Part shown: positions 2 through 64,000 of the stretch, piece after piece
How positions within the stretch are numbered: position 1 is the stretch's first letter
Layout of the letters: each line of letters starts with the position of its first letter
NCBI GenBank assembly: GCA_905147135.1
Contig: LR990051.1
Location: 15,405,115-15,469,114 of the forward strand
DNA: 64,000 bases
Direction: 5' to 3'
Source of the DNA: Blastobasis lacticolella
Taxonomy: Eukaryota; Arthropoda; Insecta; Lepidoptera; Blastobasidae
Made by a program: the position numbers and the translations under genes
Notes under the pieces: generated by a model
Database searches by the model: none
Told to the model about the DNA's origin: nothing
Seen by the model: only the letters and a program-made list of their open reading frames with translations

Positions 2-1024
2 GATATAAAACTGTTAAAGGAAAATGAAAACCATTTACTGAAGCTGTGGAAAAATCAAACTTCTATTATTGAATCAGGGGGTCTAAAAAGGCCACATTAG
101 CGTTTCATATTATGATTCATATTTGACTGTCACAAACTTATCTGATCAGGTGGCCAGTACTGGAACTAAGTGACGCCATTTTGAATTTTCATGTCAATGT
201 CAACAACAGCGACGCTGCAGATGAGTTTGTGACGAATTAATATGAATTATATTATGAAACGCTAATGTGGCCTTTTTAGACCCCCAGAATACAATCTACT
301 AAAACGAGTTGAAGTCTCTATGGAAAACCAATGCCAATTACTTAATTTTCATTTAAATACCATAGAAAAAGCCACGGACACCATAAAATCCGAAATCAAA
401 AATGTTGAGAACACCAATGAGCTGTTAATATTATCCATCATGGCAGATAACATCCTTACAAACCTCAAGACTCTTCAGGAAACCTTAGTAGAAACCATTA
501 CCAACGTTTACTATGGAAAATTGAACATTCACCTTTTGCGACCAGATCAACTGCGAAAAGAACTCAGCGTCATATCCGGACAACTAACGAAGGAATTAAC
601 TTTACCAATTGAAAACATACAATTGGATTTATCCAAAATGTATCATTTGTTACGAGTGAGAGCAAGAATTACCAAGGAACATTTCCTATTCGAAATAAAA
701 ATTCCATTAGTAAGCAGAGACCAATACGATATTTATAAAATAATACCAGTTCCACAGCAAGTCAACAATACCATGGTCACCCTACTACCAATTGCTACCT
801 ATGTAGCTTTAAATATCAACAAGGATCAATTCATACCACTGTCAATATCTGATCTACAGAATTGTGTCCAATACGATATTACTACGCGTCTTTGCCCCCT
901 CCAGAAGCCTCTCTATCAGATAAGATCTGATGAGAGTTGGTGTCTCAAAGATGAAATTAAGCACCACTGCAAGATCAACACAGAATCCTGTAAAACTACT
1001 TGGTCTCCATTAAGTAGTACATAA
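2..1024 (+). pseudogene. env: Errantivirus-type env fragment (baculovirus F-like), interrupted by a MITE
   Basis: An open frame enters from the left edge, is interrupted at 75-286 by a MITE, and resumes to a stop at 1022-1024. The readable part is an ectodomain stretch rich in helix-forming residues, followed by a region with the LRPDQL and IKIPL type motifs seen in Env proteins of insect errantiviruses, which are related to the baculovirus F protein family. Such a protein would mediate membrane fusion in an intact element. Here the N-terminus lies outside the window, and the C-terminal third with the membrane anchor is missing from this strand. A matching C-terminal piece lies at 1342-1890 on the minus strand, so the element was rearranged. 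The family call rests on motif memory, not on an alignment. This is an old broken copy and is not expected to be functional. Confidence 0.7.
75..286. mobile_element. MITE inserted in the env fragment
   Basis: The ends are inverted repeats: GGGGGTCTAAAAAGGCCACA near 77 is matched in reverse complement up to 285, and pairing continues for about 45 bp. GAAT occurs just before (71-74) and just after (287-290) the element, which fits a 4-bp target duplication. Collapsing one GAAT keeps the env frame open, so this is an insertion into a formerly continuous frame. It is non-coding. The core, from about 150 to 235, recurs at 48.8 and 49.6 kb. Confidence 0.8.
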
Positions 1025-8067: not shown

Positions 8068-8150
8068 CTGTAAACAATGAACTTTCCCGCGGGAACCTAT
8101 TATTTTCTCGGGATAAAAAGTAGCCTGTGTTACTCAGTCATAATTAGCAT
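8068..8150 (+). repeat. Dispersed repeat fragment (CCCGCGGGAA type)
   Basis: TTCCCGCGGGAACC followed by CTCGGGATAAAAAGTAGCCT recurs in reverse orientation at 37545-37625, so it is a dispersed repeat. It supplies the start codon region of an accidental long open frame that runs to 9537. Confidence 0.55.
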
Positions 8151-8299
8151 TATATTAGGAAAAGAACTTTGTAAAAATGTAGTTTTCGAGTTTATTTATT
8201 ACAAAAAATACAAATCTTTTCTCTTTATGATGTTATATAGACTACTAGTGAGACCCGGCTCGACTTCGTTCGCGTACACCTACTTTACGTCTACCCACC

Positions 8300-8722
8300 C
8301 TTTTTTTCTTGCTTATAAACCTCTTCTGCGGTACTGTTATACAATACCTAAAAGGGCTCACATCACACCATACCTCATAGATAAGCAGATGTTAAACATG
8401 GAAAACTCGCGTATTCTCAAGTACTCCTGTTTTCTTAGCTCGCTCTTTAAAACCGAGTGTCCTATCTACTTGTTTGAAAAATTGGAGTTCAAAACCTACA
8501 ACAGCCATCTTAGAGATAGAGGCCGGTTTTTACTTCTTCGAGTACAATCTCTCGCATGCACCCGTGGTTGCTTCAAACACGCCGCAGCCAGAATCTGGAA
8601 CGACCTCCCACCTCCAGTGCGAGCAATCCCTTCCTACATTCCGCAACGAATGTGCAAAATGGCTGTTGCGAATCCATTCACGGGCTGCTGGAGTGAAGCT
8701 GGACCACGGTTTCTGGTGATGT
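8300..8722 (+). pseudogene. LINE reverse transcriptase C-terminal fragment
   Basis: The frame reads RAHITPYLIDKQML, later KTECPIYLFEKLEF, and then ARIWNDLPPPVRAIPS, typical of the post-catalytic tail of an insect non-LTR polymerase. A +1/+2 frame switch moves the ending (SLPTFRNECAKWLLRI) to the neighbouring frame, which stops near 8719. The catalytic region is absent. The fragment is open in frame with the downstream gypsy sequence, which explains the 486-codon frame at 8077-9537, but the two parts are unrelated. Confidence 0.7.
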
Positions 8723-8838
8723 TCAATTATCTAATTATTCAATTCTCTAATTCTCTTAGTAATACTGTTATACCTAAAGTTTATTTTAATTTTTTTATGC
8801 CATTTAATTTGTTATGTAATTTGTTGTATGCGTTATTA

Positions 8839-10498
8839 AAAAAAGATGTCAAGTTTACGTGGAACTCCGAGTGCCAAGAGTCTTTTAATACGATAAAGGG
8901 CTTGTTGTCCTCCAGCGTGGTGCTCGCCCACTACTCGCCGGAGCTGCCGCTCGTGCTCACCACGGACGCCAGCGCGGTGGGGGTGGGCGCGCTCGTCTCG
9001 CACATCACGCCAGAGGGGGAGAGGCCAATAGCGTATTCGTCGCGCGTACTTAACTCAGCAGAAAAGGGTTATTCGCAAATTGAACGGGAGGCTCTGTCTA
9101 TTGTGTTCGGGGTTAAAAAATTCCACCACTACTTGTATGGCCGGAAATTTCTTTTACGGACGGACCACAAACCCCTGGTAACGATTTTCGGGGATAAAGT
9201 AGGTATACCCATAATGGCAGCGAGCAGGTTGCAACGGTGGGCAGTCATGTTATCGGGATACGACTTCGATATTGAATACGTTAGGAGCAGCAAAAATGCG
9301 GCAGATGCGTTGTCGCGGCTGCCGGTGGGTAGTGTAAAACGTCTGTCATCCGAAGAAACTTACATCAATTTCGTACAGAATTTTTTACCAATTACCCACG
9401 AGACCGTCCGAAAAGAATTAGATAAAAATGAATTACTTAGGAAGGTAGTTTTGCTTATACAATCTGGCTGGCCAGAGAAGTGTCCGGATGATGATATTCA
9501 GCCATATTTTTCACGACGCCATGAGTTATATATATAATATCTATATAGATATGGGTTGTATCATGTGGGGTTATAGGTTAGTTATTCCCGATTCGTTGAG
9601 AGAAAGCTTATTACGAGAGTTACATGTCGGGCACATGGGTATTGTAAAAATGAAAAGTATCGCTCGTAGTGTCATGTGGTGGCCGGGTATCCACTCCGAC
9701 GTCGAGCAGGCGTGCAAACAGTGCGCGACGTGCGTGGCGGAAAGCGCAGCGCCCCCGCGCGCGCCTCCCCAACCGTGGCCGTATCATTCCCAACCATGGA
9801 CACGATTACACATCGATTTCCTAGGGCCGCTACAAGGGAAAACATTTTTTGTAGTAATTGATTCCACTTCAAAGTGGATAGAAGTTTTTCAAATGCATAC
9901 AACGACCGCTAACTCTGTAATTAAAATCCTACGCGAACTATTCGCGAGATTTGGCTTACCTAAGGAAGTGGTGTCCGATAATGGACCACCATTTTCCAGT
10001 AGGGAGTACTTGGAATTTATGGTAAACAATGGTATTAAAACGACGTTTGCAGCGGTGTATCATCCCTCTTCGAATGGAGCGGCAGAGGGGGCCGTTAAGA
10101 TATGCAAGCGAGCTATTAAAAAATCAATACGTGACAAATGTGATTTAGACGTAGCGTTGCAGAGCTACCTAATGGCATATCGTAACGTGGAGCACAGTAC
10201 AACAGGCGTAGCCCCAGCGGAGTTGCTGTTGCGCAGGAAGCTCCGCTCCAGGTTAGATTTGTTACAAAGCGAAGGCCAGATTCAGGACAAGGTGCGAAAT
10301 GCTCAGTCTAAACAATCGCAGCAAGCTGGAGGCGTAGATAGACAATTTAACGTTGGGGATCTTGTGTGGGTGCGTGATTTTACCGGAGGAAAAAGATGGA
10401 TAGGCGGTCAAGTAAAGCACAGGGTAGGTAGCAGGAACTATGTGTTAAGTAGAGAGTTGCTCAGACCAGTACGGAGATATTGTTTAGACATAGACTAA
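8839..10498 (+). pseudogene. pol: Ty3/gypsy pol remnant: RNase H plus integrase
   Basis: The sequence starts inside the RT-RNase H linker (VKFTWNSECQESF) at about 8848. RNase H follows with the TTDASAVGVGAL motif (aspartate), IEREALSIVFGVKKF (glutamate) and RTDHKPL (aspartate), ending NAADALSRLP. Integrase lies at about 9550-10498. It has an HHCC zinc finger (HVGHMG then CKQCATC), the DDE core (HIDFLGP, VSDNGPPF, SSNGAAEG) and a C-terminal GDLVWVRDF module. Protease, gag and most of the RT are missing. The stop at 9535-9537 separates the two domains within an AT-dinucleotide expansion. The integrase type resembles the mag / K02A2.6-like lineage. Clade assignment is inference. Confidence 0.9.
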
Positions 10499-12602: not shown

Positions 12603-15339
12603 TATTACAATGCTTTAGTGATGGTATCGTTAATGTAGTTACAGTAAATTAAGATGAAATATTCCCAGTACTCGGGCGAGTCTACCGCCGAGGTAGCTTT
12701 CTGTGTCGTAAGTTATGCTGAGCATGCCTGCGGAGACTGCAGTGCGGAATTGAGCTGTATAATAGCTTCAAGGGAAACAAATGAGCTTTGGAGCTCTGGT
12801 TTATGTTATAATACACTTCATTTTAAGTGCTTTCGCTATATAATGACGATATTTCTTTTCAAGATAGACTGATTAAGTTATCATGCTTAATAACTAAAAC
12901 ACGGTTTTGTAGACAATAGGTGATAAACATCATCAATGCCACTGGCGTGGAAGGCGTGGAGAGTGGCCTAAGTGATGGTTTTTTTATGTCATATGGTAGG
13001 CAAACAGGCAAGCATGTTTGAACTATCATTATCACCGATGCACTGTTAGACTTGAGCCTTTTTATATTTTTGCAATCAGTTCAAATAAAAATTACAGTGT
13101 TGATAAAAACAAAGAAAACGCTTCTGACTTTTTTTGGTTCACGGAGGTTTTAGCTGATTTGCTTTCACCAATCATTTTAAAAGGCCAACATCTCTGCCGT
13201 ACGATGACTACTGACATACATTGGCCACCTCCATGCCTTCCACACCAGTCGACGCAGTGCTTCTTGCATGCACCGGCTTTTTCGCTATCCATCTCGTGGG
13301 GGACCGTCCCACGCAGCGATTGCTGGTCCGTGGGCGCGACTTCGAGAACTATCAGCCATCGGTTCTGCGTGTTTCGTGTCCTACTAATCACCGCTTCAGT
13401 TTTACGACTCTTGTTTACTGACCTTAGTTCTGTTACAAAAATTCTTATGATATAATTTAGAGAAACTCCGAGCATAGGAGCTTACATCGCACGCTGAGAG
13501 ATCCTGCGCTTTCCGGCTTAGTATGAAACCGTGTATATACCATCCAATCTGTTTTTCATTAAAAATAATAATATTACTCCTCTGAAATTTCCCTGTTAGA
13601 AATAATAATATTATTTCTTTAAAATTTTCCTGTGCGGTGGCGAAAATAAGTTACCGGCAACATTGTATTTTGCCCGTGATGGGGAAAATAAGCAAGCGTG
13701 TGGGAAAGCTATTGCCTGGACAATTTGCCACGAGGTTCAGCTTTATTGCTGCGACTGTACCCTATTTCCTAGTGCACATACAATCTTCAAGCGGAGTGCC
13801 TAACTCCATCACTTGCTGAACGAACCCGATTTACAAAATTGTTACTTACTTTTACTGAAAGGCTTGCCTTATGTGTTTGAATTATCTGTTCACTACTGGA
13901 TACAGATTGGTTAACACAGTGCTGTATTGTTAACCTATTTGAATATGTGTCTATACTTTGTCTGTTTTAAAATAATTCCACCATTGTACGGTAATGTGCA
14001 TGAAGTTTTAAATAAATAAATATACCGGTTCAAGCTTAGAATTATCCATACTCAGACTAGCAATACTGAAATTAAAATATGGTTATTTGTAATTGATATT
14101 TTAGCTCTCTGATTTTTAATTTTATTTATTACACCTGAAGTCAACAGCTTAGTTACAAAAATGTTAAACGAAACATCATTACTTTATCATAGGCCAATTA
14201 CAGACTTCTATTATATTACTTAAACTAGTAAACAAATAAGGGTAGGAGTAGAATAAAAGAAAACAAGTCGACGTTAATCTACCTATCCAAAGAAAATTAG
14301 AAAAAATATTATTTGCATGGAGCACAGTGTGTGATGATGTGATCTGTTAATGTGATTGTGTTGTGTTAATGATTGGTGGTGTGAGTGTGCGTGTAAAATC
14401 CTTCCGATATTATTAATTATTTATTTATTGTATTTTATTTTATTCGGGTAGTTTACAGCTATAATACTGGAAAATAGCTATTCTATGAGCCATTTACAAA
14501 CCGCCACATATGAATTTTACAAGATACTTTCCAAATCATCAATGTATTTCTTATAAGTTATAACATACTACTAATTACGAATACAATATCTTGGTTAATA
14601 TTAAAAATTAATTAAACATGAATATATTTGTCACATCACCGACATAAGTTCAAATATTAGTTTGAAATAATATAAAAACGATATACTTAACTCAAAAACA
14701 ATTAACTCAGGTTGCGAACATATTCCCAACGTTTATGTAGCTTATATAAAATTTATATTATGCCATCTAAAGGCAAAAAGAGAACTAGTGCAACTAATTT
14801 ATTAAGCTGAAAAGAAATGTTGTTTAAAGCTTTTTGTACAAAGGAAAAAGTCTCCGTTTTCTCTTGATTTTCTTTAAGCCGAGGTCGGGCAACATCTACA
14901 TTTTTTATATCTTTTAACTCAGTTTTTCTGACTGAATGCCTCTTATATACTGTAAATCGTATTCTTCTCTTTAACACAATAATTGCAATGCAAATAAAGT
15001 CTACTCGTATTGAATATTAAATTCGTATTAAATCTCCTTCGAAGAATAACATTGTGTGTTTAAGAAAGGACTAAAATTAATCCTATTAATCAGAAACAAT
15101 TATATTATAATTTTCAGTCAGTCTACAGTCTTCAGAAACATATCCTGTAGGTTCGAGTCCTGTTTGACCAAAGCTTTGTTTTAAACCCAGCCAATTTACA
15201 AGGATTAACCCGATCCCGAATCACGACTTACAGAGGATTACAAAATGTGACATTTCATAGGGCTTGATCTGATAAGAGATTAAATAGTAGAAGTGCTTTG
15301 ATAGTCTCCGACTACCTGTCTATGGAATACGGGCGTGAA
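12603..15339. other. Long AT-rich spacer without recognised genes
   Basis: Open frames at 12654-12872, 13018-13455, 13092-13475 and 14753-14977 show no recognisable domain. No repeat family was identified. A single B-box-like GGTTCGAGTCC occurs near 15151 without an A box. Confidence 0.4.
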
Positions 15340-15347
15340 TATGTATG
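15340..15347. repeat. Target-site duplication, left copy (TATGTATG)
   Basis: The 8 bp TATGTATG abut the left end of the P element and are repeated exactly at 23384-23391. Eight-base duplications are the hallmark of P-element integration. The right copy continues into a short TATG run, so some match by chance is possible. Confidence 0.85.
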
Positions 15348-15378
15348 CACAGAAATAAAACAAAAACAGAATCCATGT
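15348..15378 (+). repeat. P element left terminal inverted repeat (31 bp)
   Basis: It begins CACAGAAATAAAACAAAAAC and ends CATGT at 15378. All 31 bases are matched at the right end. It would be the transposase cleavage site. Confidence 0.92.
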
Positions 15379-15460
15379 TACCATAAAGAGATGCGGTGCA
15401 TGCAAGGTGTGTCAATCTCCTTTGTTGTACATGACATACACTCATCGGGTCTTACAACGC

Positions 15461-15470
15461 GCCGCCATTT
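15461..15470 (+). repeat. Possible subterminal inverted repeat (GCCGCCATTT)
   Basis: This 10-mer lies 113 bp from the left end and recurs in reverse complement at 23313-23322, 61 bp from the right end. Drosophila P has 11-bp subterminal inverted repeats in similar places. A 10-mer match could be chance. Confidence 0.4.
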
Positions 15471-15514
15471 CGTAGCGTTCGGACATATTTTTCCTTGACG
15501 AAAAATATTTTAAA

Positions 15515-16114
15515 ATGCCGTCATGTGTAGTGAAATCGTGTAAAAGTTACTGGAAAAAATGTAACAAGACAGGAGGAATTACCTACCACTCGTAAGTAAT
15601 TATGATTCGTGCTAGTTTTTTTATAAATGTTTTATTTACTTTGGTGCAAATTTCGAACAAAAGTACAACGATGTGGCTACCTGTTTTTCGGGAAAATTCC
15701 CAAAAAGTGGGGAATTCTTTATTAAGTTTGTGACTCAGATCAGGTTCCAAATTTTTATTACCTATCGTATCTGAAAAGAACTTGAATGATTATAACTATA
15801 GTCTACCGCGCACTGCTATGATATAAGCATAGTAGTCCTATTTTATAAATAAATAATATAACACCGCTTTCTGCGGAGCCCTTATTATTTTCGATCCCGA
15901 TTTTATTGTAACCGGGTTATATTATTTTAATAGGTTTCCTAGAAATAAAAACCGTAAAGACGATTGGATTCTAATTATACGAAACTGTAGAAGAGAAACC
16001 AATTGGAACCCATCATCTGCGAGTACCGTGTGCAGTGCACATTTTGATGACGTGGATTTTATAACAACCGCGAAGGGGCTACGATGCTTGGTTCCGTACG
16101 CCTTTCCAAAACGG
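15515..16114 (+). other. THAP domain exons (exons 1 and 2)
   Basis: Exon 1 encodes 25 codons plus two bases and ends at donor GTAAGT (15592). Exon 2 begins after AATAG at 15934 and completes the serine codon. The zinc ligands fit C-x4-C (C4, C9) and C-x2-H (C59, H62). P28, W37, F63 and P80 sit at the positions of the THAP invariant residues. The LVPYAFP end corresponds to the AVPTIF box of the family. Confidence 0.9.
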
Positions 16115-19100
16115 GTAAATTAACTGAATAGCTATTTTGTTTTTTATAATTTTATTTGTCCCCCCCTCGAATAGCAGATAAGAAAATAGGGCAGGATAGG
16201 GGTACGGCAGGGGTACGACAAGACTAAAGTAGGGGTACGGGTGGGAAACGGCAGGCGTACGGCAGGGCTACGGGAGAGGTACGGCAGGGTTACGGTAGAC
16301 CTAGGGGAGGGTTGCGAGAGGGGTACGGCACGGATTATGGGAGCACGATAAGGCTACGGTGGGGGTACGGGAGGCAAACGGCAGGCGTACGGCAAGGCTG
16401 TGGGAAAGATACGGTAGGGGTACGGCAGGCATACGGTAGGGTTACGGTAGGCCTATGGGAGGGGTACTTCAGGCATATAGGAGTGGTACGGGAGTGCTGC
16501 GGAAGGGATACAGCAGGGCCACGGTAGGGGTACGGCAGGCATACGGTGTGGTTAAGTGAAGGGTGCGGGGAGGGTACATTATGGGTACGGTAGGGATACG
16601 GGAGGGGTACGGGATGGTGACAGGAGAGATACGGGAAGGTGACAGGAGAGGTATGGGAGGGGTACGGGAGTGGTACGGGAGTGGTACGGGAGTGGTACGG
16701 GAAGGTTGTGGGAGAGGTACGGCAGGGCTACGGGAGAGATACGGCAGGGGTACGGGAGGGGTATGGTGGGGGTATGGCAAGCATACGGTATGGTTTAGTG
16801 AAGGGTATGGGGAGGGTAAGTGAGAGGTACGGTAGGGGTACGGCAAGCATACGGTAGAGGTACGGCAGGGTTACGGCAGGCATACGGTACGGGAGGGTTA
16901 CGAAAACGAATTGCACCGGACAGCTGTCTGTTATTTATTTTTAATTACACTGCCCGAAATGGTGGGATGCTCTTGTCTTATATATTTTATTGCTTACAGT
17001 TACTATTATACCCTCAAGAAACGCCAAGCACTTCCTCTATTCTACAGGTATTGAGTTTTTATTGTATTAAAATTTACGTAATAAATAAACGGGATAGTTT
17101 ATTACAATTGTAAGTAAAAAACCATTGTATGGTATGTAAAAAATTGTGTGAAACATGACTTATTTTTTTTTAGGTATCTGAACTTCTAGATGAATTTGTT
17201 TTAACTGGATATTGCCGACTATGTGCCACATCAAACTGTGAAGGCACGTTATTAAATGTTCAGAGTGACGATGTTTTGAAAGAATTAGTAGTGAATATGT
17301 TCAAAAGGCTGAATACCGATATTGACTTTAGCCATGAAAATCTTCCAACAACTATTTGCTCTGTATGTGTGAAGTCATTATACACGGCTTATGATTTCGT
17401 TGTTGGTACAGAACAGGCACAGATCACTCTAAATAAACTATTCATAGAGAAATACAAATATAAGGTGCCATTAAAATTTAATTTTGGCAACAACATGTAT
17501 AATCCGAGTTCATCTTTACAGCTGGTATGTGAACAAAAAATACACTTAACCATAATTAGTATATAATTGTAGATAAATATAATGTATTATGATGTTTTAG
17601 ACGAAGCACGAATCAGAGGCGTATGATGTTGATCCGCCTTGTTTACACGTATCAAACACTGCTACTTCTTTACAGCAGGTATGTAAACAAACAAGGAAAA
17701 CTCAAGGCTCTACTATGAGTATTATATAATTGTAAATTTTATAAATATCTTGTCATGTTTTTAGACGAACAACGTATCAGAGGCATATGTTGATCTGCCT
17801 TGTTTAAACGTGTCAAACACTGCCAGTTCTTTGCAGCAGGTATGTGAACAAACTATGCTACTTCTTTTCAACCAGTATGGTTACTTGTTTTACCAATGCC
17901 TGTTTTTCATCGTTCAATAATATTTTGACATTCTAATTTCCGTTTTAGCCATCACCAAACACTGGAGCAGCAACATCACTATATTTACATGAACTAAGCT
18001 CAACAACTCCGTTTTTGCTTGATTCACCCAGAAAACGTCGATTGAAGGACAGTCTTGAGAAGAAAAGACAGATTATTGATAGACAAAAAAAGAATTTAAA
18101 AAGATTGAATCAAAAAGTTAGACGACTCCGAAATCGAAATGAATCACTTAAGAATATTCTGAAAAACCTTAAAGAAAAAAACTTCATTACCACAGACCTA
18201 TACAACACTTTGAATGATAATATTATTGCTACCGATTTGTTTAATAACTTTAATCGAAAAAAACTTAAAAAGAATATTAGATACTCTCAATCAATAAAAA
18301 AGTTTTGCCTAACATTAAATTATTATTCGCCAAGAGCATATGAGTATGTAAGACAATCGTTTAACACTTGCTTACCCCATCGAAAAACTCTAGCGAAATG
18401 GTATGGTCATATAAAAGGTGAGCCTGGGTTTACCGAAGAGTCATTCCAAGTATTAAAAGCAAAAGCCGAAGTGAACCAACACCGACTTTTATGCTCACTT
18501 GTATTTGACGAAGTTGCCATAAGACCCCAAAAACTTTGGGACGGTAAAAAAAATATAGGCTATGTGGATATGGGGGCTGGAGTTGAAGAGGGTGCTGCCT
18601 TAGCGTCTCAAGCGCTGGTGTTCCTACTAGTTGGAATTAATCAGCATTTTAAAATACCTGTAGGATATTTTTTAAGTAACGGTGTAACAGGGGAACAGAA
18701 AACAAACTTAATAGAACTTTGTCTAATTAAATGTTTTCAATCCGGCGTCGACGTTGTTAGTTTAACATGTGATGGCCACGCCACAAATTTAACTGCGTTT
18801 GAATTACTTGGCTGTAATTTAAAACCAGAAACTTTAAAAACAACATTTAAACATCCATCCAATGACTCTGAAATTGCTTGTTTTCTTGACCCCAGTCACA
18901 TGATTAAGTTGATAAGAAATCATCTTGAATCAAAACAACAATTCATTGATTGTAACAATCAAATAATCAGATGGAACATCTTAGAAAAACTAAATAAATT
19001 TCAGGAAGAAGAAGGTTTGCATCTGGCCAACAAATTAACTAAAACTCACATAAATTTTAAAAATAAAATTATGAAAGTTAAACTTGCTACTCAAGTTTTT

Positions 19101-20348
19101 AGTACGAGTGTTGCTACTGCAATAAAAACTTGTAGAGAAGTTTTAAAATTGTCTGACTTTGAGGACTCTAAGGCCACGGAAGTTTTTATAAAAAAAATCA
19201 ATGATATGTTTGATATTTTCAACAGCAGAGGAATGCGAACTTATGATTTTAAGCAACCCATATGGTCACAAAATAAAAATAAAATTTTTGATTTTTTAAA
19301 CGAGTTAAAAGAGTACATTATGAAAATTAAAATTAAAATTACCACCAAACGAAAAGTTACTACAAATGGAAGGCCAACGCTTCTAATTACTAAGTACAAT
19401 AGGCCTATCGTGGAGACGAAATGTAAAACGGGCTTTGTTGGCACCCTAATAAATATAGAAAGTCTCCAACATCTATATGAAACACTGATAAGTAATGGAA
19501 AGTTGATATACCTACCGACTTATAAATTAAGTCAAGACCACCTTGAAATATTTTTTTCATCCATTCGTTTTCAATGTGGTAATAACGACAATCCCAATGT
19601 CAGACAATTTAAAGGGAGCTATAGAAAACTCCTGTCATATTTAGAAATTCAATGTACTTCTACAGGCAACTGTGTCCCTTTGGAAAAGGTGGCAATCTTA
19701 AATTGTACATCTAGCACTCAAATAATTAATACTACTATTCCTTATCAAAGACATGACGAAGAAGAAGATTCGTGTACTTCTTCTCTTAAATTTCTAGACA
19801 AATGTGATTTTAATTTAGGTGATTTAACAAAACAGTTGGAAGTGGAACAGTTTAATGATTGCCGGCATATTATAATTGGCTATATATCGGGCAATATAGC
19901 ATATTCGTTACACAAAAGTTTAAAATGTCATATTTGTTTAGCTAAACTAACAACCACTGAACAACAATATTTTCATAAACTGATTTTACAAAAAAACAGA
20001 GGAGGGTTGAGATTTCCATCTCAAGACTTATTTGATATTTGTTGCACTTGTGAAATTGTAATTAGAAAGTTGTCATCAGAAAATATACAAATATTTCATC
20101 AAAAGCAACATTTGTATTTGATGACAAAGATATTGCATATGTTCATTGGTAATAGAAAAACTTTTCTAAATGTAGAAAATGAACATGCCATGGCAGGAAT
20201 AGACCACAAAATAAATTTAATCAAATGTATAATTCAAAAATATTTGAACGTCAGATACCATCACATTTCCAAAATGGAAAGTATAGCACGGAATTTGCAA
20301 AACAAAAGACAAGTGTTCAAAAAGCTGACACAGCATCAGGGATTTTAG
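15515..20348 (+). CDS. THAP-ZAD-P transposase, seven exons, about 1,069 aa
   Basis: Exons: 15515-15591, 15934-16114, 17000-17047, 17174-17524, 17601-17678, 17765-17839, 17949-20348. All six introns are GT-AG, the phases fit, and the joined 3,210 nt hold no internal stop. Domains: THAP at residues 4-86; ZAD-like zinc domain at about 116-178; duplicated 25-26-residue segments at about 220-270; basic coiled coil at about 297-347; P transposase core to the end. Likely catalytic residues are D457 (LVFDE), D545 (LTCDGH) and E803 (QDHLEIFF), with the DPSH...K..RN motif of the GTP-binding insertion at 584. It would bind element ends and cut and join DNA in the nucleus. The start was chosen because MPSC opens the THAP fold. 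The stop sits on a SINE junction, so the native C-terminus may be altered. Domestication as a host gene is the alternative, but termini and target duplications favour a transposon. Confidence 0.9.
16190..16906 (+). repeat. G-rich minisatellite inside intron 2
   Basis: The sequence repeats GGGTACGGCAG-like units, with variants GGCTACGGGAGA and GGTACGGGAGT, at roughly 11-12-bp spacing for about 0.7 kb. Runs of three or four G occur about once per unit on the sense strand. It lies wholly in the intron 16115-16999. Open frames across it on both strands are low-complexity artefacts. Confidence 0.9.
17000..17047 (+). other. Exon 3, 48-nt linker exon
   Basis: Acceptor TGCTTACAG precedes 17000 and donor GTATTG follows 17047. 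It encodes 16 residues (LLLYPQETPSTSSILQ) in phase 0 on both sides, so the frame is open with or without it. It may therefore be skipped. Confidence 0.7.
17174..17524 (+). other. ZAD-like zinc domain exon (exon 4)
   Basis: The exon follows TTTTTTTTTAG and ends before GTATGTGAAC. It encodes YCRLCATSNCEG, a helix-prone middle, and LPTTICSVCVKSLYTAYDF. The cysteines give C-x2-C-x44-C-x2-C (C116, C119, C164, C167). The spacing and the LP..IC..C...L..A..F signature match the ZAD (zf-AD) domain of insect zinc-finger proteins, a treble-clef dimerisation module. No C2H2 fingers follow, unlike usual ZAD proteins. Confidence 0.8.
17525..17839 (+). repeat. Tandem intron-exon duplication (exons 5 and 6)
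   Basis: Two units of about 155 and 161 bp follow each other: 17525-17678 and 17679-17839. Each has a GTATGT(G/A)AACAAA intron start, a TTTTAG acceptor and an exon encoding TKHESEAY...TSLQQ or TNNVSEAY...SSLQQ. The exons are 78 and 75 nt, in phase 0. The start of the next intron (17840) carries the same GTATGTGAACAAA. The segments are polar with one conserved PCL and have no known fold. Confidence 0.85.
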
Positions 20349-20752
20349 CCGGTAATGCTGCGGTGAACTCCGACCCGTAAGCGAAATGTTCTGAGTTTGA
20401 TCCCCGGTGCCGCTATATTGCCCTTTTTCTGAGTTATGTACATTAGTTGAACACTAACCGACGCTCTTACGATGAGGGAAAACATTTTGAGGAAACCTGC
20501 ATATTCCTCCACTGTAATTAACTAAAATAATCATCTTTACTTTAATGTCCTGGTTGTGCTCCCGCGCACGAGAGCCCGGCTCCGCCTTGACCATGATCCA
20601 GGATTTGGCCGATCAGGTAATTACAGTGGAGCGGCTATAATCTGATCTTCACTGTAAATTACCTGATCGGCCAAATCCTGGATCATGGTCAAGGCGGAGC
20701 CGGGCTTTCGTGCGCGAGAACATTACCAATGCCAAGATGGAATGATGATTTC
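20346..20752 (+). mobile_element. SINE-A copy abutting the transposase stop, with an inverted duplicated 3' half
   Basis: The SINE head (GCCGGTAATGCTGCGG, and GTTTGATCCCCGGT near 20396) begins at the transposase stop TAG. The body is readable to about 20508. Then the 3' part appears first in reverse (about 20530-20635) and then forward (about 20645-20740), giving a long hairpin. GATTT occurs at 20341-20345 and again near 20757, a possible short target duplication. Confidence 0.75.
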
Positions 20753-20762
20753 GCTGCGGTAG

Positions 20763-21090
20763 ATGTGTGTAGTTTCACGCAGAGACCACATTCAAAACAC
20801 CCAAATTCGCGTCCACATCCATGGTATTACAGATAAGGTGCAAGAGTCTCGTCTTCGATGGTATGGCCAGGTTTCACGCAGAATGTTAATTTTCGTAGGA
20901 AGCAAATGTATGGCCATGCTACGTCCACCAGGCACTGGAACGTTAGGCCAGCCCAAGAAGCAAGGGCTTGACACATTAAGGGTGACATGAGTGCCAACAA
21001 ACTCAGTACCGAGTATGCCGAAGGCCGAGTGAAGTGGAAACTTGGGACCTTGGGCTCTACGATGCTAAGACTAACGATGATGACTAATTT
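20763..21090 (+). pseudogene. RTE-like reverse transcriptase C-terminal fragment
   Basis: Reading across frameshifts gives KVQESRLRWYGQVSRR and later MSANKLSTEYAEGRVKWKLG, a familiar end of non-LTR polymerases, finishing in an ACGATGATGACT tail. It is a short 3' fragment nested in the P element. The related minus-strand fragment at 51.65-51.83 kb has the same DMRANKL...DRAKW type ending. Confidence 0.65.
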
Positions 21091-21149
21091 AGTATAAGAA
21101 AGTTGTGTATACTCTGGACGAGATCACAGTAGTGGCACCAATTATTTCA

Positions 21150-21745
21150 TTATTAAGACTTATAAGTTGCATCGTCAGGCATTATGCACAAACATCGCTT
21201 TGGTATCACAAACATTTTTGTCAGTCGCATTTTGTTTATATGTGTTTACAAGCCGTGCTTTTATAAATATTGTGGTGTTCACAAATATTCATGTAAGTGT
21301 ATTTTTGTTGTTGTTTTCTATCAACTAACAAGCTATGTTTCATAAATATTATCTTAAACGGCCTTATAAGTTGCTTCATCAAGCATTGTGTACAAAAATC
21401 ACCTTGGTATGACAAGCATTGTTGTAAGTTGCATTTTTGTTGTTTTGTTGTAATCACAAACAAGCTACGCTTAAAATATTGTAATGTAAATATTGTCTTT
21501 AACCGCCCTAAAAGATGCTTCATCAAGTATTGTGCACAAACACAAATCGGCTTGGTATCACAAATATTTTTGTAGGTCGCGTTTTTGTTGTTGTGTTGTA
21601 AGCTTGTAAGTTTGTAACTAGTAAAAAGCTATGCTATTCCAGGTATTATGCTGCCTTAAAATTATCTTCAAGCAGTGTGCACAAACATTGCTTGGGTTGG
21701 TATCATAAACATTAATGTAAGTTACCTTTTAACAAGCTAAGTCGC
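21150..21745. repeat. Degenerate tandem repeat, about 150-200-bp units
   Basis: The block (AAGTTGC)TTCATCAAGCATTGTG, then ACAAA, TTGGTATCACAAA, then TTTTGTTGTTGT recurs starting near 21165, 21366, 21511 and 21668. Spacing varies between about 145 and 200 bp and similarity is moderate. Frames on both strands are artefacts of the repeat. It lies inside the P element, 3' of the transposase. Confidence 0.7.
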
Positions 21746-21944
21746 TTCATCCACATTTAAGGCGAGGACGGCGTTCATTTAATTGAAACGAATGATTTTT
21801 AAACGTGTAGATTGAAGCAGACTTATAATGATTCGATAGCTAAATAACTATATCAAAAGTTTCTTCGAATACTTTTTTTTAATTATGCATACATACATGA
21901 CGTTTCGCCATTTTCCTAGTACTTTAATCTACTTGTCACGGTTC

Positions 21945-22562
21945 TGACTAACCACTCTCGCTTCTTCCAGTTGCGCACTCTTCATCTTTTCGTACATGCT
22001 CGACGATTTAGGCTACTCTTTCTTTTTGTAAAATATCTCTGATTTGATCATGCTATGTACCTACTTCTCAGTATTTCCCTTCTAACGCTTCCATGCATTT
22101 CTGCCATATACCTTTATCTTTTTCTTTTTCGTCCTCTCTTCACGACCAAACCAACTTTGAATCCTCATCCACGCTAGCAAGTCAGGGAACTGCTTGAAAC
22201 ATCAACCAGTTAGTAGTCAATTACACAATTCCGTAATTTATCGCTCATTGAAACTCCTTCAATACTTCTAAACACCCTCACTTCTATTGCATTTATCCTA
22301 CTTTCGTGCTTGTTGTCTCATAGACAGTTTTCTCTTCCATACGTCAATGTTGTAACGAGCACTCCTCTGTTAAGAAGCTATATTGGGCACCCGGCTGTTC
22401 ACAAAAGTATGTAGTGCTCTTTTCACTATATTTCTGGCATTCACTCTCCTTTCGACATCACTTTCACACTTTACACCCCTTGTAAACGTTGGTCCTAAAT
22501 ATGTATAAAAACTCACCTGTTCCACTTTTCTACCTGCGATTACGATTTCACAATCAAGTTAT
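21945..22562 (-). pseudogene. RTE-like reverse transcriptase fragment, minus strand
   Basis: The reverse complement from 22562 reads CEIVIAGRKVEQV, then YLGPTFTRGVKCESDVERRVN, a motif block following the catalytic core in these polymerases, and continues with frameshifts and stops. It is a decayed nested insertion within the P element. Confidence 0.6.
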
Positions 22563-22899
22563 AACATCAACATCAACATATCCTAGAAGATTAGGGTATT
22601 TAGAAGGTAGGGTATTAGGTTTAATCGATTGTTTGATTTAAAATCTGCAATTTAACGTTTACTATCACCGAATTGATTTTTATTTAGGGGGTTACTTCAT
22701 TATAATCAAACAAAAATCTATCGAAACTAGTACGTGTTCGCATTTTCAGATCGCTCCGCGTTCAAAATGCGTAATTCATAAATATACCTTATTCTATGAG
22801 TAACACATTCCACTGTGATCTTTCGGCGCAAAACGGATTTTAATTCCGTGCCGCCCTCGCCTTAAATTTTTATACCTACTTATGAGCATTGTAGTGTAG

Positions 22900-23155
22900 C
22901 CTTAAGGCTAGTTACCCACAAGCGCGCTCCATACAAACGTAGTTTGATAATATTTTCAAAGTACACAGGTTTTTATATTTCTATAGAAATCTTGAATCTC
23001 GTGTAACTTTGAATTGATATATTTATTATACCACAAGCATCGATATTAGTTTCTGGATCACGTCTGCAAAATTTCATTGATTTTGATAGCGCAATATTGA
23101 AAATATGATCAAACTTCATTTGTATGGAGCGTACTCGGGGAGACTCCTCTTATCT
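22900..23155. repeat. Foldback repeat (GCTCCATACAAA family), inside the P element
   Basis: GCGCTCCATACAAACGTAGT near 22923 pairs with ACTTCATTTGTATGGAGCGT near 23113 as inverted arms about 36 bp long. A second member lies at 30828-31055. It is non-coding. Confidence 0.65.
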
Positions 23156-23352
23156 ACATATTTCATTACTTAAGAATTTTTAAATAAAAATTACAATCAG
23201 AAATTAATCATTTTTATTTATTTATTATTGTAAAGTTGTATTGCTAACATAATACATAAAGAGGGTAAAATGGATCATGTATATGGCAACCCTAAAATTA
23301 CGCAGACATATAAAATGGCGGCCATTTCTATGCTTCCCTCATGACTTAAGAC

Positions 23353-23383
23353 ACATGGATTCTGTTTTTGTTTTATTTCTGTG
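23353..23383 (-). repeat. P element right terminal inverted repeat (31 bp)
   Basis: It reads ACATGGATTCTG...TTTCTGTG on the plus strand, the exact reverse complement of 15348-15378. TATGTATG follows at once (23384-23391). Confidence 0.92.
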
Positions 23384-23554
23384 TATGTATGTATGTTTGT
23401 AAGTGCTTTTGACTTTGAAACTCAATATTAATGTCATCACTAGAATTTTAGCCGCAGCACGTCCCCCAGATCAAATCTACGAACGTATGTCTTGCGACTA
23501 CGGCAATCATCTGTGCAAATCTTGAAATTGATTCGATTTTAAATAAAACTAGTC

Positions 23555-23760
23555 AGTCGTGTGGTGTCTGGTAGAGCAGAAAACACCATGTTTACGAGGA
23601 AAAAAGTTTTCGTAGCCTAGAAAATAGGCTGAAGCGTTGTTATTGTTATATTTTTAACACTGCGATCTCCAACCCGCCTGCCAAGCGTGGAGATAATGGT
23701 AATAACCTCGCCATTTGTGGTAGAGGCATACAGAGGATTTTATGGGCTGTGATGATGGTA
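23555..23760 (+). mobile_element. SINE-C copy, diverged
   Basis: It starts CAGTCGTGTGGTGTCTGG and contains AACACTGCGATCTCCAACCC and GCCAAGCGTGGAGATAATGG, ending GGGCTGTGATGATGG. It is more diverged than the copies at 31.1 and 42.5 kb, and no target duplication is visible. Confidence 0.75.
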
Positions 23761-23764
23761 GTTA

Positions 23765-24155
23765 TTTTTATTTACGGCGGCAATATCAATGGAGTCTGAT
23801 TGTAATTTCAATAGACGGCTAGAAACTAGACAGTAGAATCTTCCATACCTACACATACACGTGCTTCGATACACTTTCACAGATGGTTTATAATATCAAA
23901 GAAAAGTGGCCATTATGTGATATATTATATTGTACCTATATGGTTTTGGGGTGAGGGGACCCGATTCCCACATTAATCACTCGAAGCCGTCTTCCCGCGT
24001 GGCGTCTAACACGACTCCATTTCTGGCTCATCGATTATAGAATCAATTAAGACTCTCCCAAACAGGCGCGATGTAACGTGAGCGTTTTGCTATAACGCGT
24101 TCTTAGATGCGTTTTTAACGTCCTGTAGCAACCACGTCATTTAAAAGGTATTTCT
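23765..24155. other. Spacer without recognised genes
   Basis: Nothing was recognised except CTCCCAAACAGGCG near 24056, which also occurs near 3864. Confidence 0.4.
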
Positions 24156-26589: not shown

Positions 26590-29139
26590 TATAATTTGTG
26601 GCGATTGGAATATTGATATTTGCAAATCTAATAGGTTAACATCCGAGTTAACTAATCTATTGAACAATTATGGTTTAGTTCCATACATAAAAACTCCTAC
26701 CCGACACACAGCATGCCTTGACCAAATAGCCAGCAACATCCGTAGTGTTAACTCTGTGGTGCATAAACTAGCTCTTTCAGATCACGAAACAGGGCAAACT
26801 ATTTCAAGCCTATTAAAAGTATGAATCAATACTATATAAAAAGACGTGACTATAGTAAGGAAAACATTGAAAAATTTAAAAGATGTATTAGTTCCCTAAC
26901 GTTCTCAGAGGTTTTATGTAAAAAGGATACAAATGAGGCCTGTAATGAGTTTCACAGCTTGATGTCATTGTTTAATAACCTTTGTTTTCCCTATATTCGT
27001 ATAAAAGTTGATAATAGATGCCGAGGTCCAAAATTCCAAAATGGCTTACGAAAGGTCTGAAACGCTCTTGTAAAATTAAAAGGGAACTTTAAAATATGTC
27101 AATTCGCCTGAAAATAAGATTCGCAACAGAGATAATTATAGGACATATACTAGGATTCTGAAAAGGTGTATATCTAAATCTCATAAATTATTAAACAAAG
27201 ATTGATTGACAATTCTAAAAATAAATGTAAAACGACATGGAATGTAATAAATGATAATGACATTGTAAATCCTAAAAATGATATTGAGATTATAACCAAA
27301 GAAGACGTACAGTATAGTGACCCAGGAGCTATTGCTGAACTTTTTAATAATTTTCATATTGACATGACAAATAATACATCTTGTAATAAATCGAATCCGT
27401 ACAATCAAAATGACATTCCCATGAATTTAAATTCTATTTATTTGACACCAACCAATGAAATTGAAGTCTTTAAAATAATAAAAAATCGAACTAACAGTAC
27501 AGCAGTTGGTTATGACGATATTAGTACAAGAATATTGAAAAGTTGTGCAGCTGCTATAAGCAGACCCCTAAGTTATATAATTAATATTTCCCTCGTGCAA
27601 GGTGTATTTCCAGAAATATTAAAAAAATCCGTTGTTAAACCTCTATATAAAAAGGATAATAAGGAGTCAATGAATAACTATCGGCCTATAACGCTCATTT
27701 TAATATTTTCTAAGATTTTCGAAAAAGTAATGCATAATCGCCTCACTCATTATCTTAATAAAAATAACCTTCTCAGTAAAAACCAGTATGGTTTCCGAAA
27801 AGGATGCTCTACTACACAAGCTTGCTTTAATCTTTTAAAGGAAGTAACAGAGAGTTTAAACAATAAAATTCCAATTGTTGCTATTTTCTTGGATATGAGT
27901 AAGCCCTTCGATTTTGTAAGTCATTCTATACTATTGTCCAAACTTTATAGACTTGGAATCAGAGGTTCTGCTCATAATTGGATAAAAAATTATCTCGAAA
28001 ATCGTACGCAATGTACAGAAATTCAGAGAATTTCAAATTTTCAACTCGAGGCTCACAGATCTCAATTCAAATTAAATTGCTGTGGAGTACCCCAGGGAAG
28101 TATCTTGGGGCCTTTACTTTTCTTATGTTACATTAACGACTTGCCAAATTGCATAGAAGAGCAATCAATATTGTTTGCAGACGATACGACATTATTAATT
28201 AAAGATGACAATATAAATAATTTTAATGATAAAATTAATAATACATTAATAAAGGTAATGGAATGGTTGGAGAAGAATAATTTAAAAATTAATATTAGCA
28301 AAACACAATTTATTCAATTTAATACACTTAAGTCTAGGGATATACCTTTTAATATTATTTATAATAATGACAAAATCGAAAACGTAAATCTAACTAAATT
28401 CTTAGGTTTTTCTATTGACAGACACTGCGATTGGAAGAGCCATATAGATAATGTTTGCTTTAGAATTAATAAATTTGTTTATGCCCTTCGTCGTCTAAGT
28501 AGGACAACTTCAAAGGAAGTTGCTCTAACTGCTTTCCACGGTTACGTGTCGTCAGTGCTCAATTATGGGCTTATGCTTTGGGGAAATTCAGTCGACATAA
28601 ATAGAGCATTTATAGCACAGAAGAAATGTCTTCGCGCTGTATGTCAATGCCCTAATGGAAACAGAGACTCATGTAAGCCTCTCTTTAAAGAAAATAAAGT
28701 GCTGACTCTGCCGTGCATGTATATTAAACAAATATGCATATTTGTTAAGGAAAATCCCGAATATTTTAAAACACACGGAGAAGTTTTGAAAAGAGCAACA
28801 AGGAACAAAAATCGAATATATTTACCGCAAATGCGTCTGAATGTTCACCGAAATAACTCCTTCTGTATGGCAATTCGTATATACAATAGTCTACCAGCGA
28901 GTATTAAGGACTGCCCGTATAATAAATTTAAAAGTACCTTAACAGGGTGGCTTCTAGACAAATGCTTTAACTCTATAAAAGAAATGTTAAATCAGTGAAG
29001 CTTTAGTACCGACTTAAAAAAGAAACTGTGTATATATTTGCATGCCATTGTTGGCTGAACATATGGTACGTGAATGTAAAAACTATCTAATTGTATAACT
29101 ATGTTCTTGCAAATAAAAATTCTGATTCTGATTCTGATA
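26590..29139 (+). mobile_element. LINE (non-LTR retrotransposon), 5'-truncated, with a long RT frame
   Basis: It starts within an endonuclease domain: CGDWNIDIC at 26597 and LALSDHETG near 26770 match the end of the APE-type fold. A frameshift near 26810 and another between 27060 and 27202 interrupt the reading frame. The 3' end is marked by a TTCTGATTCTGATTCTGAT tail at 29119-29138, a short tandem repeat tail as in several insect LINE clades. The 5' end is missing. The clade is not certain; a Jockey-like or related group is plausible. Confidence 0.85.
27202..28998 (+). pseudogene. LINE reverse transcriptase, 598-codon uninterrupted frame
   Basis: The frame covers the whole reverse transcriptase and C-terminal region. 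Readable blocks: NRTNSTAVGYDDI, the NNYRPI motif, QYGFRKGCSTTQA, the first catalytic aspartate in FLDMSKPFDFVSH (27892-27894), GVPQGSILGPLLFL, and the FADDT box (28174-28188) with both aspartates. The post-catalytic tail includes LGFSIDRHCDW and YNSLPASIKDCP. DMSKPFD differs from the usual K-A-F-D pattern (proline in place of alanine), which may weaken the enzyme. The start shown is only where the frame opens after a frameshift; the endonuclease upstream is in another frame. It would copy its own RNA at a nicked target. Confidence 0.85.
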
Positions 29140-62253: not shown

Positions 62254-64000
62254 TGTCTCCGAAACGCAGCCCAAACATTCCAGCGATTCGTGGACGAGCT
62301 TACCAGGGGATTAGATTTTTGTTACGCCTATCTCGACGACTTCCTCATTTTCTCTCGTGATCATGAAGAACACGAAGAACATCTACGACAAGTCTTCAGA
62401 CGATTGAGGGACTACAGTATGGTTATCAACACCGGCAAATGTATTTTTGGAGCATCTCAGGTCGACTTTCTTGGATACACCATCGATGCCTGTGGAATCA
62501 AACCGCTTGACACCAAGGTGCAAGCAATACAGAACTTCCCCACGCCCTGAACAGTGAAGGAGTTAAGAAGATTTATGGGCATGCTTAATTTCTACCGGTG
62601 GTTTATACCTAGCGCCGCCCAACAGCAGAGTTCCTTTAACTCACTATTAATCGGATAGGTAATCATCCTGTGAAGATGTCCAATGAATGTCTGGAGGCAT
62701 TCCAGGCATGCAAAGATAGCTTATGCCGAGCCACATTAATGGCTTACCCTATTTACGACTGCAAGCTATCCCTTGCGAGTGACGCTTCTGATGTGGCCGT
62801 AGGTGCGGTTTTACAGCAATACCAAAATGGTAATTAGCAACCGTTAGCCTTTTTCTCTAAGAAACTCAGTCCCGCTCAGCAAAAGTATTCACCGTACGAC
62901 AGCGAGCTTTTGGTGATTTACGAAGCAATCAAGTATTTCCGTCACATGATTGAGGCCCGTGACTTCATCATCTTCACAGACCACAAGCCGTTGACGTTCT
63001 CTTTTTACAATAGAAAAGATAAATGTTCACCCAGGCAGTACCGTTACTTGGATTTTATCGCACAGTTCTCTACAGATATCAGACATATCACGGGGAGAGA
63101 CAACGTCGTCGCGAATACCTTGTCAAGAATCGAAGAAATACATGTGTCACCGGTGGATATCATAGGTCTCGCTAAAGCACAGAATGCAGACGACGAATTG
63201 AAATAACTTCTTCAAGTAGGATCATCACTTGCATTGTCGAAAATAACAATGCCTGATGCTACAACGAAACTGTACTGTGATACCAGCACACCAATACCAA
63301 GACCGTATGTGCCGAAAACATTTTGCAAGCAGATTTTTGACCAGCTGCACTCACTAAGTCATCCCGGCGCCAATGCGTAAGCTAAGTTAATCGGAGAGCG
63401 TTTTGTATGGCCAGGCATGCGTAAAGATACCAGAAAATGGGTTCGCTCTTGCATACCATGTCAACGAGCATCACAAGACACGTTACTTCTGCAACGGGCA
63501 ACTAAGAGATACCACGAGTCAGATTTACGCATATCCATATAGATCTGATTGGCCCATTACCACTCTCCAAAGCTAACAAGTACCTACTGCTACACCATAG
63601 TGGACAGATTTACCCGTTGGCCAGAAGTGATACCAATAAAGGATGCTACCGCCGAAACCGTGGCAACTTCACTACTTAACGCATGGATTTCTTGGTTTGG
63701 ATGCCCTCAAATTATAGTCACCGAGCGTGAGAGATAGTTCGAGTCACACCTGTTTCAACACCTCGCCAAAATATCAGGTTTTCAGCACAGACGAACTATC
63801 GCCTATCACCCATCGTGTAATGGGCTCGTGGAAAGATTACACAGACAATTAAAAGCGGCCTTGATGTGCCCGAGAATTGGACATGCACGAGAATTGGACA
63901 GAGTCCCTACCATTAGTACTCTTGGGCATTCGTTGCGCCTATAAAGAAGATTTAAAAACATTCTCGGCTTAACTCGTTTATGGCGAGACGCTAAAGTTAC
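62254..64000 (+). pseudogene. pol: Ty3/gypsy pol remnant: RT, RNase H, integrase, runs off the window
   Basis: Reverse transcriptase starts at about 62254 (LRNAAQTFQRFVDEL), with the YLDD catalytic box near 62329 and VDFLGYTID. A stop near 62548 interrupts it before LRRFMGMLNFYRWFIP. RNase H follows: LASDASDVAVGAVLQQY, a stop near 62835, then YDSELLVIYEAIKYF and FTDHKPLTF, ending GRDNVVANTLSRI. The integrase zinc finger (LHSLSHPGA then CIPCQRA) and core pieces ([32 protein letters not shown]) are spread over frames with several stops. The second aspartate motif reads VTERER instead of the usual S/T-D-R/Q-G type, so it is damaged. The 5' part, LTRs and gag are not visible. It resembles the CsRn1-like group, differs from the element at 8.8-10.5 kb, and is clearly dead. 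Confidence 0.88.

What the first reader, a model, noticed from the sequence alone, without database searches (positions are those of the whole stretch)
15515..20348. THAP-ZAD-P transposase: a zinc dimerisation domain inserted into a P transposase
Seven exons with matching phases place a ZAD-like C-x2-C-x44-C-x2-C domain between the THAP DNA-binding domain and the coiled coil. In Drosophila P the THAP is followed directly by the leucine zipper. ZAD is an insect-expanded dimerisation module normally found with C2H2 fingers. Its capture would give the transposase a second dimerisation surface and could change end-synapsis or target choice. I know of no described family with this order.
Basis: partly seen in the sequence, partly recalled or inferred. 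Interest (0 to 1): 0.9.

Follow-up and report, generated by a model that had tools for sequence, protein, structure and literature searches.

The report
P transposon carrying captured zinc domain
This insect DNA carries a complete jumping gene of the P-element type whose enzyme has an extra zinc-binding pairing domain, apparently taken from a host gene and kept by natural selection, in a family with hundreds of mostly shortened copies in the genome.

Summary
Seven exons join into one open 1,069-aa frame with THAP, zf-AD (ZAD) and all P-transposase domains. The gene lies in a complete 8,036-bp P element: perfect 31-bp terminal repeats and an 8-bp target duplication.

In the same 577-Mb genome, 5 of 5 loci with exon-7 pieces at 88% identity or more have the ZAD exon upstream, each in its own 8-bp duplication. 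An older relative keeps THAP, ZAD and the start of exon 7; its ZAD evolved under purifying selection (pN/pS 0.38, one-sided p 0.0023), the rest of that exon did not. Other P loci in the genome have THAP but no detected ZAD. The nearest host ZADs belong to a ZAD-C2H2 gene cluster, grouped with the P-ZAD at 96/96 support.

Seven internally deleted copies share one junction that keeps THAP and ZAD; 1 of 5 translated has an open 186-aa THAP-ZAD frame, like Drosophila's KP repressor.

A real, once mobile, new variant of a P element. Extra dimerisation is inferred; splicing was not seen in RNA.

The parts
15340..15347 (.). 8-bp target site duplication, left copy (TATGTATG)
   Evidence: the right flank is a TATG run, so this duplication alone is less specific than those of the other copies
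15348..15378 (+). 31-bp terminal inverted repeat, left
   Evidence: 31 of 31 identical to the right end; best in 100 first-order Markov randomisations was 8 bp; 274 forward and 264 reverse matches in the genome at up to 3 mismatches, reversed-pattern control 0 and 0
15461..15470 (+). 10-bp GCCGCCATTT shared in inverted orientation with 23313-23322; possible subterminal repeat
   Evidence: Only two occurrences in the window, but 38 of 1000 shuffles reach 10 bp: weak
15515..15591 (+). exon 1, start of THAP domain
15934..16114 (+). exon 2, rest of THAP domain (residues 26-86)
   Evidence: pN/pS 0.20 against the older relative for residues 27-86
16160..16900 (.). GC-rich minisatellite of 11-bp spacing inside intron 2 (limits approximate)
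   Evidence: length differs between copies
17000..17047 (+). exon 3, 16 residues, possibly optional
   Evidence: One search gives open frames with and without it; GT-AG kept in 5 of 5 copies
17174..17524 (+). exon 4, ZAD (zf-AD at residues 115-184)
   Evidence: purifying selection
17398..17398 (+). left breakpoint of the KP-like internal deletion (joined to 22644)
   Evidence: Same junction in 7 genomic copies
17601..17678 (+). exon 5, linker; tandem duplicate of exon 6
   Evidence: 90% over 67 nt; the 3' end of exon 4 plus intron 4 looks like part of the same repeat unit
17765..17839 (+). exon 6, linker
17949..20348 (+). exon 7: predicted long helix (coiled coil), HTH, RNase H with GTP-binding insertion, C-terminal domain; catalytic D457, D545, E803
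20349..23352 (.). 3-kb non-coding 3' tail, part of the family
   Evidence: Shared with full-length copies: C9 4/3004 differences, C4 36/3002, C23 75/2988
22644..22644 (+). right breakpoint of the KP-like internal deletion
23353..23383 (-). 31-bp terminal inverted repeat, right
23384..23391 (.). 8-bp target site duplication, right copy

Best explanation
A complete P-superfamily cut-and-paste transposon whose transposase carries a ZAD captured from a host ZAD-C2H2 gene. Shown by sequence: element ends, target duplications, intact domains and catalytic residues, ZAD in each of the five closest copies, purifying selection on the ZAD, and P loci without a detected ZAD in the same genome. Inferred: a ZAD exon flanked by phase-0 introns entered the phase-0 intron that joins the THAP exon to the catalytic exon; the ZAD is spliced into the transposase and works as a second homodimerisation module next to the coiled coil, helping two or more transposases hold the element ends; internally deleted copies that keep THAP and ZAD could make a DNA-binding, dimerising but catalytically dead THAP-ZAD protein that acts as a KP-like repressor.
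Against: No RNA evidence. The fold of the ZAD was not obtained (single-sequence model pLDDT 43.8). The zf-AD score of the joined protein only just passes its cut-off (28.4 against 28). Only two lineages were available for the selection test; over the whole aligned exon it is weaker (pN/pS 0.61, p 0.031), and the older copy may be dead. Fixed differences between full and deleted copies were too few to say anything. Of 5 deletion copies translated only 1 has the open THAP-ZAD frame, so a repressor role is not shown. No ZAD-bearing relative outside this genome was found (13, 15, 24). Of four older exon-7 relics on C30 (63-86% identity), two have no listed ZAD piece nearby.
Confidence: 0.62

Rival explanations
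1. The ZAD is in the protein but serves nuclear import or localisation of the transposase rather than synapsis.
For: ZADs of Zw5, Pita and Grauzone are needed for nuclear localisation, and the arginine mutated in Zw5 is conserved in most Drosophila ZADs (81 of 93 in that paper); the residue after the first cysteine here is arginine (R117), which I take to be the same one.
Against: P transposases without a ZAD, such as Drosophila P, work in nuclei (established knowledge); nothing here separates the two roles.
Confidence: 0.2
2. The ZAD lets the transposase pair with host ZAD-C2H2 proteins of the donor cluster, steering it to their binding sites or interfering with them.
For: Nearest ZADs are host genes on C28; three of them lie in open frames of 567-591 aa, and the two of these that were scanned carry C2H2 fingers.
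Against: Identity to those ZADs is only 33-41%; the paper seen mentions, as unpublished data, that ZADs prefer to homodimerise.
Confidence: 0.1
3. The ZAD exon mainly serves short THAP-ZAD products (retained intron 4, 232 aa; deletion copies) that repress the element, not the transposase itself.
For: Retaining intron 4 ends the frame at 232 aa; a deletion subfamily keeps THAP exons and the four ZAD cysteines; precedent in KP and the 66-kDa repressor.
Against: The ZAD exon is in frame with exon 7 in the four copies with full-length exons 1-6; 4 of 5 deletion copies translated are broken.
Confidence: 0.12
4. The ZAD exon is an inert passenger in an intron and is not translated with the transposase.
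For: Exons 3-6 are phase 0-0 and could be skipped without breaking the frame; no RNA data.
Against: Purifying selection restricted to the domain; open ZAD frame and splice sites kept in 5 of 5 closest copies; a stop-free 117-codon frame has probability about 7.5e-5 at intron base composition; a Chilo suppressalis gene model joins an exon-5/6-like peptide to exon 7.
Confidence: 0.05

Closest known systems
Drosophila melanogaster P element and its 87-kDa transposase (PMC7776569, passages; structure 6p5a)
   Same: 31-bp perfect terminal repeats, 8-bp target duplication, THAP, HTH, split RNase H with GTP-binding insertion, catalytic DDE; internally deleted copies
   Different: 8,036 bp against 2.9 kb; seven exons against four ORFs; ZAD between THAP and coiled coil; 3-kb 3' tail. 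The sequences of the terminal repeats were not compared
Anopheles gambiae P elements (PMC1562414, passages)
   Same: 27-31-bp TIRs, 8-bp TSD, THAP + leucine zipper + HTH, autonomous copies with non-autonomous relatives, 4.2 to 7.5 kb
   Different: three exons (one family with an extra intron), 876-895 aa in the three intact reference elements, no ZAD mentioned in the passages seen
Zebrafish Pdre2 / THAP9 (PMC10983969, passages)
   Same: THAP9-type transposase, 8-bp TSD, TIR-bearing element, deleted relatives
   Different: 13-bp TIRs; the unique insertion described there is a predicted disordered stretch, not a ZAD
Drosophila CG6689 and CG10431 (PMC9810180, passages)
   Same: THAP and ZAD in one protein, THAP N-terminal in CG6689
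   Different: members of the ZAD-C2H2 zinc-finger family; no transposase domain mentioned in the passages seen
Drosophila KP repressor (PMC7776569, passages)
   Same: internally deleted P element with a short protein (207 aa there, an open 186-aa frame here)
   Different: the dimerisation region here would be the ZAD; repression untested

Membership tests
P-element superfamily | terminal inverted repeats (27-31 bp in the insect members read about) | tested here: met
   31 of 31; mismatches to this sequence at left + right end: C9 0+0, C23 1+0, C4 2+0; C30 left 1, right end partly decayed
P-element superfamily | 8-bp target site duplication | tested here: met
   9 of 9 copies with both ends in hand: C12, C9, C23, C4, C30, and deletion copies C1, C6, C2, C7a
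P-element superfamily | N-terminal THAP domain | tested here: met
   Pfam 43.3 bits against 23.9
P-element superfamily | HTH, RNase H split by GTP-binding insertion, catalytic D-D-E | tested here: met
P-element superfamily | leucine zipper / coiled coil | tested here: inconclusive
   A single predicted helix at exon-7 residues 27-76; heptads not scored
P-element superfamily | subterminal inverted repeats and internal THAP sites | tested here: inconclusive
   One 10-bp shared inverted motif, reached in 38 of 1000 shuffles; THAP sites not sought
ZAD (zf-AD, PF07776) | profile score over curated cut-off | tested here: met
   28.4 and 34.7 bits against 28; 0 of 9 cysteine-fixed shuffles
ZAD (zf-AD, PF07776) | four cysteines and the conserved arginine | tested here: met
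   C116, C119, C164, C167 and the CRLC motif with R117; all kept in the older relative. That R117 is the arginine of the paper is my reading
ZAD (zf-AD, PF07776) | zinc binding and dimer formation | not testable with these tools
   Single-sequence model too poor to compare folds
ZAD-C2H2 zinc-finger proteins | C2H2 fingers in the same protein | tested here: not met
   None among Pfam matches of the joined protein at E <= 1
KP-like repressor element | internal deletion with TIRs that keeps THAP plus a dimerisation region and an open frame, and represses | tested here: inconclusive
   One junction in 7 copies, both TIRs in hand for 4; open frame through the ZAD in 1 of 5 translated; repression untested

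The most novel reading that the evidence does not exclude
A P element captured the dimerisation domain of a host ZAD-C2H2 gene by exon insertion, kept it under selection, and now uses it twice: in the transposase, to set its own pairing or to meet host ZAD proteins, and in an amplified internally deleted subfamily as a THAP-ZAD repressor. Transposon and self-repressor would then share a domain taken from the host's own transcription-factor arsenal.
Probability: 0.25. Interest if true: 0.9.

Novelty: new variant of a known kind. Interest (0 to 1): 0.78.

Why it matters
Host genes that took over transposase parts are well known (recalled); I recall few cases of the reverse, a mobile element that took a host domain into its transposase, kept it under measurable purifying selection and spread with it, and did not search for such cases beyond. 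It offers a natural domain-swap experiment in one of the best studied eukaryotic transposases: what a second pairing module does to synapsis, target choice and self-repression. P loci without a detected ZAD in the same genome are a built-in control, and a candidate donor gene cluster is in hand.

Tried and rejected
Led nowhere or gave negatives: protein search with the ZAD region of the full protein, none of 505 candidates at E<=0.01, and with exon 4 alone, none of 5 candidates at E<=10; these searches need exact shared 5-mers and are weak for ZADs. PDB by sequence with exon 4 and with the ZAD alone: nothing at E<=1 and E<=10. AlphaFold2 of exon 4 from one sequence: pLDDT 43.8, unusable. Viral and prokaryotic contigs: no relatives. 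Rfam on 15000-24000: nothing at gathering scores. Fixed differences between full-length and deleted copies: ZAD 3 of 224 (1 synonymous, 2 not), exon 2 2 of 181 (both not synonymous), exon 3 2 of 48, intron 1 5 of 323; too few to use. The codon ratio over the whole of exon 4 was 0.51 by NG86 and pN/pS 0.61, p 0.031; the split of the exon was made after seeing the first of these, first at residue 75 (0.36 and 1.27), then at the Pfam boundary (0.38 and 1.63). The p-values are one-sided and uncorrected.

Rejected: chance C-x2-C pattern; independent ZAD gene lying next to a P element (ZAD 738-739 bp upstream of exon 7 in all five closest copies); single dead relic; domesticated single-copy THAP9 (TIRs, TSDs, many copies).

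In the tree of ZADs I used 16 sequences: 14 of the 24 non-P ZAD places whose stretches I fetched, ten partial or degenerate ones (L045-L054) being left out, and 2 P-ZADs; the four of the clade were fetched because they were among the best hits. About 65 of the 79 zf-AD places are not of this P family, so most host ZADs are not in the tree and the support could fall with them in. A fifth C28 ZAD (2.76 Mb) lies outside the clade.

Older exon-7 fragments on C30: ZAD pieces lie near 5909711-5910430 and upstream of 22194012; none is listed near 13389372 or 22215003.
Full report
OBSERVATION. Of the GT-AG combinations tried, one full model joins them into an open frame of 1,069 aa; leaving out the 48-nt exon 3 also leaves the frame open, so that exon is uncertain. 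Pfam finds THAP (residues 4-84), zf-AD (115-184), P-element HTH (344-421), RNase H N (428-558), GTP-binding insertion (586-707), RNase H C (795-829) and THAP9 C-terminal domain (905-1044), each above its curated cut-off; zf-AD is closest to its limit (28.4 against 28 in the joined protein, 34.7 with exon 4 alone). Nine shuffles of exon 4 with cysteines held in place gave 0 zf-AD matches.

COPIES IN THE SAME GENOME. The window is in contig C12 of a 577-Mb, 45-contig genome. The exon-7 search gave 61 matches; five loci hold pieces at 88% identity or more (C12, C9, C23, C4, and C30 at 34.44 Mb). The zf-AD profile, searched on its own, hits 738-739 bp upstream of exon 7 in all five, and the ZAD frame is open in all five. 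All five are insertions with their own perfect 8-bp duplications: TATGTATG, GCAATAGT, CCTACACC, CCTCCAAC, CCGACATG. Acceptor and donor sites are kept in all five. C12 and C9 have open frames throughout; C23 has one stop in exon 7, C4 indels and stops there, C30 deletions and insertions. The 3-kb 3' tail is shared by C12, C9, C23 and C4, so it is part of the element. The terminal repeat occurs 274 times forward and 264 times reverse with up to 3 mismatches, control 0 and 0; in the capped list, pairs are mostly about 1.4-3.5 kb apart, so most copies look non-autonomous (at two ends per copy, at least 269 copies; my arithmetic). P-type ZAD exon pieces occur at 41 loci at E below 1e-13 (my count of its rows, neighbouring rows merged). 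Older exon-7 fragments on C30 (63-86%) lie at four places; two have P-type ZAD pieces near them and two have none listed.

SELECTION ON THE ZAD. A diverged relative on C30 (2845100-2851500) keeps THAP exon 2 (81% aa), the ZAD exon (67%) and the first 72 residues of exon 7, which cover the linker and the predicted coiled coil but not the catalytic domain (64%), without stops in the aligned parts. Between it and the window, pN/pS is 0.38 for the Pfam-defined ZAD (19.0 of 163.8 non-synonymous, 15.0 of 49.2 synonymous; one-sided Fisher p 0.0023), 1.63 for the remaining 33 codons aligned, and 0.20 for THAP residues 27-86. Over all 110 aligned codons of the exon dN/dS is 0.51 and pN/pS 0.61, p 0.031. 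So the domain has been kept as protein for at least part of that time.

ORIGIN. Among the 120 listed of 203 significant protein relatives, 13 list THAP and none lists zf-AD; a relaxed scan of 27 of them found THAP in 14, and zf-AD is not among the first 25 of 58 families shown, which reach down to E 0.044. Their gene models could miss an exon. In the genome itself, of 12 other P loci examined, 8 have THAP sequence at E below 1e-3 and none a ZAD match better than E 0.085, within the 1,500 bases of flank held; none of the 79 zf-AD places lies near the full-length ones among them (L005-L008). In L006 the THAP exon is followed by one intron and then the catalytic exon, and the frames printed put that intron in phase 0. 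The ZAD exon, flanked by phase-0 introns, fits insertion into that intron. The 3' end of exon 4 with intron 4, exon 5 with intron 5 and exon 6 with the start of intron 6 look like repeats of one unit, so the linker seems to have grown by tandem duplication. The best non-P ZADs are a cluster on C28 at 1.045-1.100 Mb (five places, E 3.5e-11 to 2.3e-7, 33-41% identity, against 1.4e-4 for the best on another contig). The two scanned are ZAD-C2H2 proteins, one with zf-AD just over (29.5) and one just under (27.2) the cut-off of 28. The two P-ZADs group with four ZADs of that cluster at SH-aLRT 96, UFBoot 96 (16 sequences, most host ZADs not included). The identity says that the capture is not recent or that the true donor is lost.

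DELETION SUBFAMILY. Seven copies share the junction 17398|22644, which keeps the THAP exons, exon 3 and the four ZAD cysteines and removes exon 7. The four with both ends in the fetched stretch have TIRs with one mismatch per end and perfect, different 8-bp duplications; C18 showed only the left end, C13 only the right, C7b neither. Five were translated: C1 has an open 186-aa THAP-ZAD frame if spliced as the full element; C6, C2, C7a and C18 are broken. Drosophila's KP element makes a 207-aa repressor, and the 66-kDa repressor arises by intron retention (PMC7776569, passages). Retention of intron 4 here would give a 232-aa THAP-ZAD protein. Repression is inference.

MECHANISM. Shown: structure, past mobility, selection. 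Inferred: splicing of the ZAD into the transposase and its role. ZADs bind one zinc through four cysteines and several dimerise; they are also needed for nuclear localisation of three Drosophila proteins (PMC5081699, passages). I judge extra homodimerisation most likely, nuclear import next.

KNOWN OR NEW. In the held library, THAP and ZAD or zf-AD were found together only in PMC9810180, whose passages say that CG6689 and CG10431 are ZAD-zinc-finger genes with a THAP domain. In one search only 20 of 80 papers with two of three terms were listed, 10 of 13; one search returned one unrelated paper. Subscription papers and repeat databases were not searched, so 'undescribed' is limited to that. 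I file the element as a P element (features tested and met) and its ZAD as a real zf-AD domain; it is not a ZAD-C2H2 protein.

Noticed in passing
window 16160-16900: Intron 2 holds a long GC-rich minisatellite of 11-bp spacing whose length differs between copies.
   Followed up: partly
window 20529-20750: A 94-nt inverted repeat with 34-nt spacer (84% complementary) lies in the element's 3' tail about 180 bp after the stop codon; by eye the tail also looks like nested retroelement debris, not verified.
   Followed up: no
window 266-1021, 8074-10495, 27187-28995, 62838-63203: ORFs with Baculo_F, RNase H/integrase and reverse transcriptase matches: a retroelement-rich neighbourhood.
   Followed up: no
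G000 C28:1.045-1.100 Mb (L065-L067): Cluster of ZAD host genes, three in open frames of 567-591 aa, nearest relatives of the P-ZAD.
   Followed up: partly
L005-L008 (C22, C17, C7, C13): A second P family, 41% identical in exon 7, with THAP exons; the matched part has no stop in three of the four and one in L007, so it may also have been active recently.
   Followed up: partly
G000 C2:15218128-15221591 and 15228073-15231536: Two terminal-repeat pairs exactly 9,945 bp apart with identical spacing, suggesting a duplication that carries a non-autonomous element.
   Followed up: no
P0018 (Chilo suppressalis evm_014021): A 1,205-aa gene model with THAP and P transposase domains also lists PF25298 (Baculovirus FP protein domain 2): another possible fusion or a gene-prediction artefact.
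   Followed up: no
L033 (C10:9259300-9261300): A deletion copy of another make: whole ZAD exon at 93.6% DNA identity joined to window 17827-17866 and then 22496 onwards.
   Followed up: no
window 15461-15470 and 23313-23322: GCCGCCATTT occurs only at these two places in the window, inverted and near both ends; from recall it resembles a YY1/Pho site and lies about 45 bp upstream of the start codon at the left end.
   Followed up: no
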